A DNA stretch of 64,000 nucleotides from assembly GCF_000023325.1 (NCBI RefSeq), contig NC_012785.1:124001-188000 (forward strand), given 5' to 3'. Every line of letters begins with the position of its first letter. Positions within the stretch are counted from its first letter, which is position 1. The notes under the pieces were generated by a model. That model did no database searches. It saw nothing but the letters and a program-made list of their open reading frames with translations, and was not told where the DNA came from. Of this stretch, positions 3,451 to 36,405 are shown piece after piece. This stretch comes from Kosmotoga olearia TBF 19.5.1. GTDB taxonomy: Bacteria; Thermotogota; Thermotogae; Petrotogales; Kosmotogaceae. The position numbers and the translations under genes are program-made.

Positions 3451-4551
3451 ATGAAAATTCTGGCTGTTGATGATAACAAAGAAAATATCTATATGTTAGA
3501 GACTCTGTTCAAGAGCTATGGTTATGAAGTTGAATCTTCCCAGAATGGTGTTGAAGCTCTGGAGAAATTGGCCGAACAGGATTTTGACGTGGTAATTTCC
3601 GATATTTTGATGCCCGAGATGGACGGCTTTCAATTATGTCGCAGGGTGAAAATGGATGATAGATTAAAAGAAATCCCTTTTATACTTTATACCGCTGCCT
3701 ACACCGATCCAGAAGATAGAAAATTTGCCCTCAGCCTTGGAGTCGATAGGTTTATTATCAAGCCATTAGAACCAGATGCTTTTGTTAAGATAGTAAGAGA
3801 AGTTATTCAGAACCATAAAGTGAAACCTTTAAACAACAACAAGGTAGTGAATAAAGAAGAGATTGTATATCTTAAGAACTACAACGAGAGATTGATCAAG
3901 AAATTGGAAGATGGAATGCTTCAGTTAGAAGAAAAAAATAAAGAACTCGAACAAAGCTATAAAAAGGTACAGAGAACCCTGGATTCCGTTGTTGAAACAA
4001 TAGGATTGGTAATTGAAATGAGAGATGCCTACACTTCTGGTCATCAACGACGCGTAAGCCAGCTTGCCTGCGCTATTGCCAGAGAAATGAACCTGTCAGA
4101 AGAACAAATTGAGGCTGTTCGTATAGCTGGCCTTCTACATGATATTGGCAAGATATCCATACCGACAGATATTTTGAACAAGCCCGACAAACTGAATAAA
4201 TTTGAACTCGGAATTGTAAGAAACCATCCACAAACTGCATTTGAAATATTAAAAGACGTGGAATTTTCCCAGCCCATAGCTGAGATTGTGCTCCAGCATC
4301 ACGAACGAATAGATGGATCTGGTTATCCTAATGGCTTGAAAGGTAACCAAATTCTCACAGAAGCGAAGATACTAGCAGTGTCAGATGTTGTTGAAGCCAT
4401 GGCGTTCCACAGACCTTATCGTCCGGCACTTGGTATAGCTAAAGCTTTAGAGGAGATCACCACAAATTCAGGTAACCTCTACGACCCTGAGACTGTAAAA
4501 GCTTGCATAGCAGTGTTCTCGCGGGGATTTGATTTTGAAAAAGAAAGGTAA
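3451..4551 (+). CDS. Response regulator with HD-GYP phosphodiesterase domain
   Basis: The 366-residue protein has an N-terminal receiver (MKILAVDDN, acceptor Asp51 in SDILMPEMDG, conserved KPL near 110). A coiled-coil linker (about 140-175) follows, then an HD-GYP domain with HDIGK (His230), HHE and the diagnostic DGSGYP. HD-GYP proteins hydrolyse cyclic di-GMP, so phosphorylation by the adjacent kinase probably controls c-di-GMP levels. I chose ATG 3451 because GGGAAGGTGA precedes it and it gives the normal receiver start. The frame is open further upstream only because it runs through the dead receiver gene. No terminator is seen after the stop. Confidence 0.92.
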   Translation: MKILAVDDNKENIYMLETLFKSYGYEVESSQNGVEALEKLAEQDFDVVISDILMPEMDGFQLCRRVKMDDRLKEIPFILYTAAYTDPEDRKFALSLGVDRFIIKPLEPDAFVKIVREVIQNHKVKPLNNNKVVNKEEIVYLKNYNERLIKKLEDGMLQLEEKNKELEQSYKKVQRTLDSVVETIGLVIEMRDAYTSGHQRRVSQLACAIAREMNLSEEQIEAVRIAGLLHDIGKISIPTDILNKPDKLNKFELGIVRNHPQTAFEILKDVEFSQPIAEIVLQHHERIDGSGYPNGLKGNQILTEAKILAVSDVVEAMAFHRPYRPALGIAKALEEITTNSGNLYDPETVKACIAVFSRGFDFEKER

Positions 4552-8291: not shown

Positions 8292-8319
8292 ACTCTCTTT
8301 GTCCCGAGATTTGGGATTG

Positions 8320-8602
8320 GAGCGAACTCCTGGTAAGAATCCGAGAGTCCGAGAATCGAGAGGGCCGCTGTGCGGCGGATACGAATCCCTTCGGGATTGA
8401 CCCGAACTCCTTCGGAGTTGTCCCGAACCACTTCGTGGTTGTTCCGAACCGCAAGCGGTTGTTACGAACTCCTGGTAAGAATCGAGAGTCCGAGAACCGA
8501 GAGGGCCACTGCGTGGCGGATACGAATCCCTTCGGGATTGACACGAACTCCTTCGGAGTTGTTCCGAACCACTACGTGGTTGTCTCGAACCGCAAGCGGT
8601 TG
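8320..8602 (+). repeat. Array of short palindromic hairpin units (locus 1)
   Basis: Two blocks of four hairpins with roughly 21-bp period lie at 8384-8460 and 8524-8601. Stems are AATCCC/GGATT, AACTCC/GGAGTT, AACCAC/GTGGTT and AACCGC/GCGGTT, with TTCG, TACG or AAG loops and a constant YCG linker. Each block is preceded by a GCCGC/GCGGC-type or GCCAC/GTGGC hairpin (8364-8376, 8505-8517) and a GAGAGTCCGAGAA module. Stem bases vary in pairs, so base pairing is conserved rather than sequence. The open frames across it are artefacts of the repeats. No gene is present from 8292 to 9354. Confidence 0.9.
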
Positions 8603-8610
8603 AAAAAACT

Positions 8611-8682
8611 GTCATTCTGGAAATGTTCTATCCAGAATCTTGTTTTCTTAAGTACGGGATCCTGAATCAAGTTAAGGATGAC
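8611..8682 (-). repeat. MITE-like repeat copy A (72 bp, full length)
   Basis: This copy is bounded by GTCATTCTGG and CCTTAAGGATGAC-type ends and contains two internal hairpins (TTCTGGA...TCCAGAA and CCTGAA...TTCAGG forms). Full copies occur in the opposite orientation at 33633, 35835 and 35974, with partial ones at 31548 and 33212. It directly follows an AACCGC hairpin unit and GAAAAA, exactly as copy D does. Confidence 0.85.
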
Positions 8683-8694
8683 TAGTTAGACTCA

Positions 8695-8848
8695 AGAACT
8701 TAGAGTCCGAGAGTCCGAGAATCGAGAGGGTCGCTGTGCGGCTGGTGAGCACGCTGCGCGTGGGTAAGCCCTGCTACGCTGGGGGTAGTCTGGCTACATC
8801 AGGGGTGTGCACTCCTTCGGAGTTGTCCCGAACCACTTCGTGGTTGAA
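8695..8848 (+). repeat. Second hairpin module with GGGTAAGC linkers
   Basis: A GAGAGTCCGAGAATCGAGAG stretch leads into hairpins built from CACGC/GCGTG, CCCTGC...GGGG, CTGGC...CAG, AACTCC-like and AACCAC/GTGGTT stems. The same module, inverted and slightly diverged, lies at about 36055-36170. The remainder to 9000 shows nothing I recognise. Confidence 0.75.
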
Positions 8849-9040
8849 AGAGCAGGACGTTTGCGGAGGCAGTAAAAGCTAAAGAGCGAGATTGGATGTT
8901 GAAGATTGGATAGGGTGAACATACGATTTCACCTCTATTGCAGAAATTTACTTCAAGATTGCGGAAATATATTTCCGCAATAAAATGGTAGTGACTACAG
9001 TTTACTGATTACAGGAAAATGAAGCAGAACAGTCCACAAG

Positions 9041-33211: not shown

Positions 33212-33235
33212 GTCATCCTGAACTTGATTCAGGAT
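33212..33235 (+). repeat. MITE-like repeat, partial copy C
   Basis: Only the first hairpin (GTCATCCTGAA, TTCAGGAT) is present. It overlaps the 3' end of the GIY-YIG gene and supplies that gene's stop codon. Confidence 0.75.
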
Positions 33236-33525
33236 CCACATAGTATATCTTCATAAAGATCACGCATTTCTGGATTAACCTTTTCTATCAAAGCGATTTT
33301 CCACTGCCTTTTCCATGTTTTTAGTTGCTTCTCTCTTTCGATTGCGCTGGAGATTTGTTCGAAGGATTCATAATACACAATATCAACACAATTGTACTTA
33401 GAAGCAAAACCTTCAATTTTCTTGCTTTTATGTTCCTTAACTCTACGCAGGAGATTGTTCGTTACTCCTATATAGAAGGTTGTTCTACCAGGGTTTGACA
33501 TTATGTAAACGAAACCTGGATTCAT
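33229..33525 (-). CDS. Small GIY-YIG nuclease-domain protein
   Basis: 98 residues with the GIY-YIG pattern (FVYIMS, FYIGVT), the conserved Arg in NNLLRRVKEH, and Glu/Lys residues in AIEREKQLKTWKR. This is the short UPF0213/COG2827 type common in bacteria, whose role is unclear; it may act on branched or damaged DNA. AAGGTGATTTT precedes the ATG. The last codons (GS, stop) come from the MITE-like repeat C, so the natural C-terminus may have been altered by that insertion. It sits between mobile elements. Confidence 0.85.
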   Translation of the reverse strand: MNPGFVYIMSNPGRTTFYIGVTNNLLRRVKEHKSKKIEGFASKYNCVDIVYYESFEQISSAIEREKQLKTWKRQWKIALIEKVNPEMRDLYEDILCGS

Positions 33526-33632: not shown

Positions 33633-33703
33633 GTCATCCTGAACTTGATTCAGGATCTCGTTCTTAAAAATTAAGATTCTGGATAGAACATTTCCAGAAT
33701 GAC
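33633..33703 (+). repeat. MITE-like repeat copy D (full length)
   Basis: GTCATCCTGAACTTGATTCA at one end, CCAGAATGAC at the other, with the two internal hairpins. It is followed by an AAAAAGG-type junction to the AACCGC hairpin unit next to the intron, matching the order at 8588-8682. Confidence 0.85.
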
Positions 33704-33765
33704 AGCCTTTTTCAACCGCTTGCGGTTATCGAGTAGGAGGGGGGGAATCCCCCCGTCCTCTCACA

Positions 33766-33797
33766 GAACCGTGCGTACGGGCCAACGTACACGGCTC
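33766..33797 (-). ncRNA. Intron domain V (catalytic hairpin)
   Basis: GAGCCGTGTACG and CGTACGCACGGTTC form the two-part helix with the catalytic AGC-type triad and a bulge. It overlaps the reverse transcriptase stop codon by three bases. Confidence 0.85.
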
Positions 33798-35067
33798 ATG
33801 GATTGAGTATCGGATTCTCCGACAGTGGTACATGCGAAAGCTTCATATCATACAGCCCTATCTTCTGGAAATACTTGTTCGGCAGTAGCCTACTGACCAA
33901 CCGGGATTGAGAGCTTCTCCATTTGTTCATCCTTATTCCAGATATTTCGCCTCTGTATCCTTTTTGTCTCATCACCCTGCATAGTTTCTTTGTCGTCTTC
34001 CATTGTCGCAGGATTATGGCTCTCAATCTCCTTCTTATCCAACCCATGAGGCCTTTGAATACTCCCACCCAATCGATTATTTTGTAGTAATTGCTGAAGC
34101 CTCTCAGCAATTGGTTTAGCCGTTTTATTATCTCTCCAATCGGTGTACATTGGTTTCTCCGGGTGAGTGTTTTTACTTTCGCTTTGAACCTTTTTATTTT
34201 CTTTTCCTGGATTCGTATTTTGCCTTTTTGTATGGTAAATCCAAGGAATTCGATTCCATCATCTATCGTGGTTATTCTCGTCTTTTCTTTGTTGACCTTC
34301 AATTTCAGCTCTTTTTCCAGTATCCGGATAGCTATTTTTAGGTATTTTTCCGCGCTTTTGTAGCTCTTTGCGAAGATTAGTATGTCGTCTGCATATCTCA
34401 CTATCCTTATTCCTCTGGCCATCATTTTCTGGTCAAATTTGTTCAGATAGATGTTGGCTAACAAGGGGCTTATTACTCCGCCCTGTGGACTTCCCATCTC
34501 ACTGGGTTGGTATTGGTCCGTTATGACTCCACTTTTGAGGAAACTTCTTATTAATCTCAATATTTTGCCATCGCTTATTCTTTCCGCTACTGCGTCTATC
34601 ATCTTTTCGTGGTCTAAGGTGTCAAAGCATTGACTAAGGTCTAACTGTACCACGTATTTCATTTTGTATTTGCACGCGAAGGCATAGGCTTTCTCTACTG
34701 CCTGGTGTGGATTCCTTCCTTTCCTGTATCCATAACTTGAAGGATGAAATCCTTCCTCAAAGATTGGTTCCATTATTTCTTTCAGCGATTGTTGTACTAT
34801 TCGATCCTCTACCGTCGGTATCCCGAGCATACGTGTCTTCCCATTTCCTTTCGGGATTTCTACCCTTTTTACCGGTGAAGGCCGGTATTCTCCTTTTCGC
34901 AACTTTTCGCTGAGTTTCTTAATCCTTTCCAGAAGGTTTTCTCCATACTCCTGAACCGTTACTCCATCTATCCCGGGTGCTCCGTTGTTTCTTCGCACCT
35001 TGTGATATGCTTTGGCCAGGTTCGATTCCAGATAAACTTTGTCAATAAGACTGTAGTACTTCCTCAT
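33796..35067 (-). CDS. ltrA: Group II intron reverse transcriptase/maturase
   Basis: 423 residues: N-terminal RT0-RT7 blocks including NNGAPGIDGVTV, LGIPTVEDRIVQQ, QLDLSQCFDTLDH, SPQGGVISPLLAN and the active-site YADD. The maturase (X) domain with LRGFSNYYKI and WIRRRLRAIILRQWK follows. There is no endonuclease domain, as usual for class C introns, which target stem-loops. The protein splices its intron and copies it into DNA. All active-site residues are present, so the element may still be mobile. Confidence 0.95.
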   Translation of the reverse strand: MRKYYSLIDKVYLESNLAKAYHKVRRNNGAPGIDGVTVQEYGENLLERIKKLSEKLRKGEYRPSPVKRVEIPKGNGKTRMLGIPTVEDRIVQQSLKEIMEPIFEEGFHPSSYGYRKGRNPHQAVEKAYAFACKYKMKYVVQLDLSQCFDTLDHEKMIDAVAERISDGKILRLIRSFLKSGVITDQYQPSEMGSPQGGVISPLLANIYLNKFDQKMMARGIRIVRYADDILIFAKSYKSAEKYLKIAIRILEKELKLKVNKEKTRITTIDDGIEFLGFTIQKGKIRIQEKKIKRFKAKVKTLTRRNQCTPIGEIIKRLNQLLRGFSNYYKIIDWVGVFKGLMGWIRRRLRAIILRQWKTTKKLCRVMRQKGYRGEISGIRMNKWRSSQSRLVSRLLPNKYFQKIGLYDMKLSHVPLSENPILNP

Positions 35068-35720
35068 GTTTCCTCCTGTATGGCCTTCCGGATAAGTCGC
35101 ATATAACAGAATCGGTTTCTTCTCCCATCCAAAGATTGGATTCTTTACCCCCCCCGGGAATCTTCCTATCTTTGCAATGGTTACTTACCTGCCCCGGCTA
35201 TTCTCAACCGTCGTTAGCATTTCAGCCTCCGTTACGGACTCCTGTTATACTCGCTTCCCTTTGTGCCATTTCCTCAATCCTTCCCCCCTTCGCAAGTAAC
35301 AGGCCCTTTCGGTTCCTGTTACCCCCATCGCTCAAGGCGATAGTCCCTTCTCCTTTCAGAGAGGTTCAACACTACTACGGGTTCATCTGCCATCCTCCTC
35401 CGCTTTACCGGTCCTTGGGTCTCCCCTTGTTCCGGCTTACCCATTTTGGGACGAGTGAGGACTTCCCCGGGTAAGACATACAGCTTTCATCCGAATCCTG
35501 CCATCCAAACCTGTAGAGTTGGAGCTCGGGCTTACCCATTCTCGGCAAGGTTACCCACTCTACCGGCCAACACTGGTTCACTTTCGTTCAGTTCCGGATT
35601 TTGCCTTAGGCTTCCTTCAGATTCACCGTTACCAGTGACACCCTTGCCCTCAGCTAATGCTTATTTCGCTCCCCGCATTCGGGACTTTCACCCTATAGTT
35701 GTATGTCATGCCGGGCACAC

Positions 35721-35834
35721 CGCGACAACTCCGCAGGAGTTCGTAACACCGGCGTAGCAGGTCGTAACAATCCCGAAGGGATTCGTGTCGCCGCGCAGCG
35801 GCTACCGGTTCACGAATCTCGATTCCCGTCACCT
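35721..35834 (-). repeat. Hairpin array (locus 2), 5' exon side of the intron
   Basis: Read on the minus strand this is the same unit series as locus 1: a CCGC/GCGG-type hairpin, AATCCC-TTCG-GGATT, ACCTGC-TAC-GCCGGT and AACTCC-TGC-GGAGTT, then TCGCG and the intron. The linkers again end in YCG or ACG before each AAC. The hairpin adjoining the splice site is the type of structure recognised by class C introns. Confidence 0.88.
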
Positions 35835-35906
35835 GTCATCCTGAACTTGATTCAGGATCTCATTCTTGAGAAAACCAGATTCTGGATAAGACATTTCCAG
35901 AATGAC
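35835..35906 (+). repeat. MITE-like repeat copy E (full length)
   Basis: GTCATCCTGAACTTGATTCA start, CCAGATTCTGGATAAGACAT middle, CCAGAATGAC end; 72 bp. Confidence 0.85.
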
Positions 35907-35973
35907 AAAGAGAGGCCTCTCGCCTCGTTAACCCGACACTTGTTCCCTAACCCGTTGTCCTGCCCCACAACCC

Positions 35974-36044
35974 GTCGTCCTGAACTTGATTCAGGATCTC
36001 GTTCTTAAAAAACAAGATTCTGGATAGAACATTTCCAGAATGAC
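35974..36044 (+). repeat. MITE-like repeat copy F (full length)
   Basis: GTCGTCCTGAACTTGATTCA start and CCAGAATGAC end. Internally it matches copy D almost exactly (GTTCTTAAAAA, GATTCTGGATAGAACATTTC). Confidence 0.85.
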
Positions 36045-36054
36045 GGTTTTTACC

Positions 36055-36405
36055 CACCCCAAAGGAGTGCACACCCCTGACGTAGTCAGGCTTACCCCCA
36101 GCGTAGCAGAGCTTACCCACGCGCAGCGTGCTCACCAGCCGCACAGCGGCCCTCTCGGTTCTCGGACTCTCGGACTCTCGATTCTTACCAGGAGTTCGTG
36201 TCAACCGCTTGCAGTTCGTGTCGCTTTATTAACTGACAGCGTCTGCAAGCCTCAGCCTCGCAAGCGTCGCTCCACCAGTTGACAGCCTCTGCAAGCGGCC
36301 TGCTCTTTCAACCAAAAGTGGTTCGAGACAACTCAGGATGAGTTCGCTCCACCGGCGCAGCCGGTCGTGCCCGCTGCGAAGCAGCTCTCTCGAACTCTCG
36401 GTCTT
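36055..36405 (-). repeat. Hairpin modules and 43-bp repeat copy (locus 2)
   Basis: On the minus strand the stretch 36055-36210 repeats the module of 8695-8820: GCCGC hairpin, CACGC/GCGTG hairpin, GGGTAAGC linkers and CTGACTACGTCAGG. A GAGAGTCCGAGAA block and a GAACTCCTGGTAAGAATC block follow. 36265-36300 is a diverged copy of the 43-bp direct repeat of 9114. The run ends at the stop codon of the DUF2207 gene. No gene is present from 35721 to 36408. Confidence 0.8.

What the first reader, a model, noticed from the sequence alone, without database searches (positions are those of the whole stretch)
33728..35720. Group IIC intron inserted inside a palindromic hairpin unit; removing it rebuilds the repeat consensus
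The intron ends (GTGTGCCCGG... and ...CTACTCGAT) can be placed to the base. Joining the exons gives GGAGTTGTCGCG plus AACCGCAAGCGGTTG, the same order as an intact unit at 8581-8602. The base pattern just 5' of the site is another hairpin (AACTCC-TGC-GGAGTT). Class C introns are known to target DNA stem-loops such as terminators and attC sites; here the target is a chromosomal hairpin repeat family. That makes these arrays landing pads that could carry many introns in the genome.
Basis: partly seen in the sequence, partly recalled or inferred. Interest (0 to 1): 0.75.

Follow-up and report, generated by a model that had tools for sequence, protein, structure and literature searches.

The report
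Group IIC introns targeting hairpin repeats
A self-splicing mobile intron has copied itself eleven times in this bacterial genome, every time at the same spot behind a small hairpin in a family of repeated hairpins, and its targeting letters have switched to match two kinds of hairpin unit.

Summary
A 1993-nt group IIC intron with an intact reverse transcriptase (RT) sits at 33728-35720 (minus strand). Joining its flanks gives a continuous hairpin array that aligns gap-free across the junction to empty arrays elsewhere, including window 8528-8641. The genome holds 11 copies: five RT-bearing and six ORF-less with one shared deletion. All 11 follow a 5-6 bp hairpin whose apex lies 12.5-13.5 nt before the cut (1% of window positions do), without a terminator T-tract, and all rebuild an array when removed. 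Six sit in YCGAAC-type (A) arrays, one antisense; five sit in a second unit type (B, GGGTAAG|C). Intron position 214 (EBS3) is T in all A copies and G in all B copies, the only one of 87 variable columns to do so; EBS1 (177-181) also tracks IBS1. The copies are mosaics, and both targeting types occur in RT-bearing and ORF-less forms. Mesotoga relatives carry 82% identical introns behind a different chromosomal palindrome, with EBS1 changed to match. Ribozyme class, RT class and shape-plus-EBS recognition are known; the target class and natural switching between two repeat types are not described in the literature I could search.

The parts
33728..35720 (-). Complete group IIC intron (1993 nt), copy 'L020'
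   Evidence: Boundaries from 11 aligned copies with different flanks; Rfam RF02001 and RF00029
33796..35067 (-). Intron-encoded RT/maturase, 423 aa, RVT_1 + GIIM domains, no endonuclease domain, YADD motif intact
   Evidence: TIGR04416 425.6 bits, Pfam, nearest solved chains GsI-IIC RT and E. rectale IIC RT
33728..33799 (-). Ribozyme domains 5-6 and 3' splice site (CTACTCGAT|A)
   Evidence: RF00029 44.2 bits; 14 hits in the genome
35476..35638 (-). Ribozyme domain 1 segment carrying EBS1 and EBS3
   Evidence: RF02001 104.5 bits; the same family hits control class C introns behind terminators
35540..35544 (-). EBS1 (CGAGA, intron positions 177-181) in a 7-nt loop
   Evidence: Tracks IBS1 over the copies, permutation p 0.002; aligned Mesotoga copies carry GAGAT or CAGAT against IBS1 ATCTC or ATCTG
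35507..35507 (-). EBS3 (U, intron position 214)
   Evidence: Only column of 87 that segregates perfectly with the first 3' exon base, 11/11 Watson-Crick
35721..35725 (-). IBS1 (TCGCG), last 5 nt of the 5' exon
   Evidence: 4 of 5 pairs with EBS1
33727..33727 (-). IBS3 (A), first base of the 3' exon
   Evidence: Pairs with EBS3 U
35727..35741 (-). Target hairpin AACTCC-TGC-GGAGTT in the 5' exon; apex 13.5 nt before the cut
33713..33727 (-). Next palindromic unit AACCGCAAGCGGTTG, directly behind the intron
8528..8641 (+). Unoccupied array equivalent to the joined exons (paralogous empty site)
   Evidence: 85% over 115 nt, no gap at the junction

Best explanation
This is a mobile group IIC (class C, endonuclease-less) intron family specialised on a chromosomal family of short palindromic repeats instead of terminators. 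The lariat-RT particle recognises the shape of a 5-6 bp hairpin, base-pairs a 5-nt EBS1 with the spacer behind it and one EBS3 base with the first base of the next unit, and reverse-splices between the two units. cDNA synthesis would then be primed from a replication fork, as known for introns without endonuclease. Because it goes into the spacer of an intergenic array and can splice out exactly, it does little harm, and hundreds of empty sites remain. Two target specificities coexist: EBS1 CGAGA/CGTGA with EBS3 U for A units (..TCTCG|A) and EBS1 CUUAC with EBS3 G for B units (..GUAAG|C). The targeting segment has been exchanged between copies by recombination, gene conversion or RT template switching. 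RT-bearing copies probably mobilise the ORF-less ones in trans. Shown here: site, geometry, rebuild, EBS/IBS covariation, mosaicism. Inferred: splicing, reverse splicing, trans-mobilisation, and the way the segments were exchanged.
For: 11/11 copies behind a hairpin with apex 12.5-13.5 nt from the cut, against 1.0% of window positions. Ten different stem sequences among the 11 sites, so shape rather than stem sequence. Of 153 window occurrences of the six IBS1+IBS3 hexamers used, 9 have such a hairpin, yet all insertions do. EBS3-IBS3 11/11 Watson-Crick, p 0.002, and position 214 is unique among 87 variable columns. EBS1-IBS1 pairs 50/55 against 37.6 in permutations, p 0.002. Empty paralogous arrays match the join. 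Mesotoga introns, 82% identical in the 5' ribozyme part, follow another palindrome with apex 13.5 nt and EBS1 rewritten to match; that palindrome has 76 and 101 copies in the two genomes. At least 9 recombination events by the Hudson-Kaplan minimum, and the window copy is a chimera. All ORF-less copies share one deletion. RT closest to class C RTs.
Against: No splicing or mobility experiment. L016 has an A-type EBS1 (3 of 5 pairs) in a B-type site, and L023 is mismatched and internally deleted. Stems are about half the 12 bp seen in the E. rectale cryo-EM complex (PMC10190682) and only marginally stable as free DNA at 65 C (-0.7 to -4.1 kcal/mol). The 11 copies are related, so the permutation p-values overstate independence. 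In Mesotoga the EBS3-IBS3 pair is not consistently Watson-Crick.
Confidence: 0.9

Rival explanations
1. The hairpins are ordinary intrinsic terminators and this is standard terminator targeting by a class C intron.
For: Same intron class; G019 (same order) and many named relatives lie behind T-tract terminators.
Against: The 6-7 nt between hairpin and cut read GTCGCG, GGTAAG, GTTACG and so on, with no T-tract (one copy has TTT). EBS1/EBS3 are not the A-rich type that pairs with T-tracts (Rfam consensus). Stems are 5-6 bp against about 9-19 bp for most named relatives with a recognisable terminator target.
Confidence: 0.05
2. One or two insertions were multiplied by duplication or recombination of whole arrays, so target preference is an illusion.
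For: Arrays are repetitive and intron copies show recombination.
Against: Flanks differ at all 11 places in stem sequence, unit type, orientation and 3' exon. EBS1/EBS3 track the site. Mesotoga shows the same geometry with a different repeat.
Confidence: 0.03
3. The units are attC-like sites and this is a group IIC-attC intron in a cluster of attC sites.
For: Units begin with AAC and end with GTT, superficially like attC boxes; class C-attC introns insert into attC hairpins (PMC7923331).
Against: No integron integrase above the curated cut-off in the genome. Units are 21 nt with 3-nt loops. The spacer GTTGTYN does not fit GTTRRRY, and the cut is TCG|A or AAG|C, not TTGT|T.
Confidence: 0.02
4. 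The A and B EBS variants arose by independent point mutation in each lineage, not by exchange of a targeting segment.
For: EBS letters are known to be malleable (T. elongatus, PMC2882425). L016 has EBS1 of A type with EBS3 of B type, as expected for a stepwise path.
Against: ORF-less B copies L015 and L024 differ from RT-bearing B copy L021 at 1-2 of 81 positions in 150-230 but at 46-47 of 170 in 501-675; against ORF-less L018 it is 7-8 of 81 and 5-6 of 172. Four-gamete violations are widespread.
Confidence: 0.25

Closest known systems
Group IIC / bacterial class C introns behind intrinsic terminators (B.h.I1, GsI-IIC, E. rectale intron)
   Same: RT without endonuclease, RF02001 domain 1, D5/D6, 5' hairpin plus short EBS1-IBS1 and EBS3-IBS3; RT closest to GsI-IIC and E. 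rectale chains
   Different: Target hairpin is a 5-6 bp unit of a chromosomal repeat array with no T-tract; EBS1/EBS3 are rewritten to the repeat spacer; 5-nt EBS1 pairing in half the copies
Group IIC-attC introns
   Same: Use a non-terminator hairpin in tandem arrays as target
   Different: No integrase, units are not attC, cut site TCG|A or AAG|C instead of TTGT|T
Thermosynechococcus elongatus intron families (PMC2882425)
   Same: EBS change opens new target sites; ORF-less copies from a single deletion outnumber RT-bearing ones; RT probably acts in trans
   Different: Those are class B/CL introns recognised by EBS1-3 sequence only; here the targets are hairpins, and the targeting segment moves between backbones by recombination
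Mobile elements in REP sequences (PMC1525189; P. putida group II intron 2 of 9 copies in REPs)
   Same: A group II intron found in extragenic palindromes
   Different: There a minority association; here 11 of 11, with a defined cut position and matching EBS letters

Membership tests
Group IIC intron | Group II domain 5/6 and class C type domain 1 | tested here: met
   RF00029 and RF02001; RF02001 also hits terminator-located class C controls
Group IIC intron | Class C RT/maturase without endonuclease domain | tested here: met
   RVT_1 + GIIM only; best solved matches GsI-IIC RT and E. rectale IIC RT
Group IIC intron | Hairpin in the 5' exon directly upstream of IBS1 | tested here: met
   11/11 copies
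Group IIC intron | Short EBS1-IBS1 plus EBS3-IBS3 pairing | tested here: met
   Covariation
Group IIC intron | No EBS2-IBS2 pairing | not tested
   No search for EBS2 was made; the position is occupied by the hairpin
Group IIC intron | Self-splicing / retromobility | not testable with these tools
   Needs RNA or mobility assay
Terminator-targeting class C subgroup | Insertion after hairpin + T-tract | tested here: not met
   No T-tract between hairpin and cut in 10 of 11 copies; one has TTT
Group IIC-attC | Insertion in attC sites of an integron | tested here: not met
   No integron integrase above cut-off; cut site is not TTGT|T

The most novel reading that the evidence does not exclude
Interspersed REP-like palindromes are a further target class for group IIC introns beside terminators and attC sites. 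In Kosmotogaceae this lineage follows the local repeat family of each genus by rewriting EBS1/EBS3, and within one genome the targeting segment is exchanged as a module between RT-bearing and ORF-less backbones.
Probability: 0.65. Interest if true: 0.65.

Novelty: new variant of a known kind. Interest (0 to 1): 0.58.

Why it matters
Class C introns are described as using three kinds of place at most, and as reading mainly hairpin shape with 3-4 pairs of sequence. Here eleven natural insertions with ten different stems, two spacer types and matching EBS1/EBS3 letters form a ready-made mutational test of how shape and sequence share the work. The stems are half as long as in the solved complex, which makes the two-point contact model directly testable. 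It also shows how repeat arrays act as safe harbours, and how one intron lineage can move from one repeat family to another. Class C introns have not been used as targetrons because their targeting is not understood (PMC7923331); a natural pair of switched specificities is useful for that.

Tried and rejected
(1) Idea: the RT has lost the prolyl-aromatic loop (E. rectale Y278-F279-P281) that touches the tip of a 12-bp stem because its own targets are short. The loop is indeed missing, but the nearest named relatives (Phaeodactylibacter, Puteibacter, Marinomonas and others) also lack it and insert behind long-stem T-tract terminators. Rejected as an adaptation to short stems; it is a clade feature. 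(2) A fixed apex-to-cut ruler for all class C introns: constant here and in Mesotoga, but not in terminator-located relatives. (3) T187G as a change that keeps EBS1 CUUAC from folding back: folding gave no clear support. (4) First genome-contig scan with the single RT found nothing. (5) The GIY-YIG ORF next to the intron as mobiliser of the repeats: single copy in the genome. (7) The attC pattern scan of the window failed on the tool's pattern rule and was not pursued.

Full report
What is there. The window lies at 124001-188000 of a closed 2,302,126-bp chromosome. A complete group II intron of 1993 nt occupies 33728-35720 on the minus strand. Domain 5/6 and a domain 1 segment are called by Rfam. 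The 423-aa RT/maturase (33796-35067) scores 425.6 bits with TIGR04416, has RVT_1 and GIIM domains and no endonuclease domain, and among solved chains is closest to GsI-IIC RT and the E. rectale group IIC RT. RF02001, the domain 1 family it hits, also hits control class C introns behind terminators.

Organism. G012 has a contig of 2,974,229 bases, the published size of Mesotoga prima MesG1.Ag.4.2 (PMC4603820).

Copies. D5 and DNA searches find 11 copies and one decayed 95-nt fragment. Five carry the RT (about 1993 nt), five are 767 nt without ORF and one is 632 nt with a further internal deletion. All six ORF-less copies share the same breakpoints, so they descend from one deletion. One RT-bearing copy (L028) has an IS256-like element in domain 6, with the 8-bp sequence ATTCCCCC on both sides; the rest of the intron and its 3' exon continue behind it.

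Target. All 11 5' exons end in a perfect hairpin of 5-6 bp with a 3- or 4-nt loop, apex 12.5-13.5 nt before the cut; 1.0% of all window positions have such a hairpin. Ten different stem sequences occur, so the palindrome rather than its letters is shared. Two unit types are used. A: hairpin, GTYNCG| or similar, then AAC.. (L017, L018, L020, L023, L028, and L019, which lies on the antisense strand of an array; the antisense reading of L019 comes from inspection of its flanks). B: hairpin, GGGTAAG or GGTGAG|, then C.. (L015, L016, L021, L022, L024). Joining the flanks of the window copy gives a sequence that aligns gap-free at the junction to unoccupied arrays, among them window 8528-8641. The A junction GTTGNNNCGAAC occurs 163 times in this genome against 8 for the reversed pattern, and small clusters occur in other genera of the family that lack the intron RT (G004, G006). 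The arrays are therefore not made by the intron.

Base pairing. In the alignment of the 11 copies, position 214 is T in all six A-site copies and G in all five B-site copies, complementary to the first 3' exon base; of 87 variable columns it is the only one that segregates perfectly (permutation p 0.002). It falls in the domain 1 stretch where the Rfam consensus has an A-run, as expected for EBS3. Positions 177-181 lie in a hairpin loop and give 50 of 55 possible pairs with the last five exon bases, against 37.6 in permutations (p 0.002). Six copies are perfect Watson-Crick: CUUAC with GTAAG three times, CGAGA with TCTCG twice, CGUGA with TCACG once. L016 is the main exception (A-type EBS1 in a B site), and L023 is poor and damaged. 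Because the copies are related, these p-values are guides only.

Sequence alone does not explain the sites. The six IBS1+IBS3 hexamers used occur 153 times in the window, 9 times with a hairpin in place, yet all insertions have the hairpin. Hairpin alone does not explain them either, since the EBS letters follow the unit type.

Mosaics. The four-gamete test finds 508 incompatible site pairs and at least 9 recombination events. The window copy matches L019 at nearly all sites in domain 1 and in a block around 800-1121, and L021/L022 in 696-746 and from 1167 to the end. ORF-less B copies share the targeting segment with RT-bearing B copies (1-2 differences in 81) while differing at 46-47 of 170 positions in 501-675. 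So targeting segments appear to have moved between backbones. Gene conversion, ordinary recombination and RT template switching cannot be told apart here.

Relatives. Two genomes of another genus in the family carry introns 82% identical over the first 450 nt, with RTs 65% identical. Their 5' exons end in a different interspersed palindrome, GTCATTCTGAGCTTGACTCAGAATCAC| or GTCATGCCGGACCTGATCCGGCATCTC| in G009 and GTCATCCCGAACTTGTTTCGGGATCTG| in G012. The apex distance is again 13.5 nt in most; L073 has no such hairpin, L075 is one base off, and two copies carry one mismatch in the stem. A consensus of that repeat occurs 76 and 101 times in the two genomes and 0 times reversed. EBS1 has become GAGAT and CAGAT, complementary to ATCTC and ATCTG. 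The window genome has 39 copies of a relative of that repeat, and none is used by its introns. More distant relatives, 37-52% in RT, mostly lie behind T-tract terminators with long stems. The move from terminators to repeats therefore looks derived, though no tree was built.

Known and new. A review lists homing sites, terminators and attC sites as known specificities (PMC4424553). Retargeting by EBS change and ORF-less proliferation are known from T. elongatus (PMC2882425). Two of nine P. putida introns lie in REPs (PMC1525189). Shape plus EBS recognition is shown by cryo-EM with a 12-bp stem (PMC10190682). What I did not find described is a class C lineage wholly devoted to short chromosomal palindromes, following different repeat families in different genera, with two natural specificities that covary at EBS1 and EBS3. 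The key terminator paper (Robart 2007) and the attC papers were not readable here, so an earlier remark on other inverted repeats cannot be excluded.

Limits. No RNA or mobility data; no same-species or same-genus genome for orthologous empty sites; the hairpins are only marginally stable as free DNA at 65 C, so binding by the particle, strand separation at replication forks or supercoiling must help if shape is read.

Noticed in passing
8300-8850 and 35721-36320 (window); 163 A-type junctions genome-wide: Arrays of different short hairpins in a repeated order with about 21-nt period, preceded by CCGAGAATCCGAGAG-type direct repeats and followed by AAAAACTGTCATTCTGGAAATG..; origin and function of the arrays are open.
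   Followed up: partly
33633-33657, 35835-35859 and 37 further places in the genome: Interspersed palindrome GTCATCCTGAACTTGATTCAGGATC, 39 copies here, 76 and 101 of related form in two Mesotoga-like genomes where it is the intron target.
   Followed up: partly
L075 (G009), L090 (G019), probably L113 and L171: Introns joined head to tail without any exon between (..CTACTCGAT|GTGCGCCC..), consistent with repeated insertion at the same hairpin.
   Followed up: no
L025, L026, L027 around 3911-4158 (G000:C1 near 82018, 87979, 1522404): Three copies of an about 250-nt repeat with a weak D5/D6 match and nearby RT fragments; probably remnants of another group II intron family.
   Followed up: partly
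L028 4060-5400 (G000:C1:1111530-1112870): IS256-like element inserted in intron domain 6, with the 8-bp sequence ATTCCCCC on both sides.
   Followed up: yes
33229-33525: Single-copy 98-aa GIY-YIG-like ORF right behind the array.
   Followed up: yes
RT residues after LGF (window protein about 275-280): The palm loop that touches the DNA stem tip in the E. rectale complex is absent in this whole subclade, including terminator-targeting members; how they hold the stem tip is open.
   Followed up: partly
208-382: Lysine riboswitch, minus strand, 96.4 bits.
   Followed up: no
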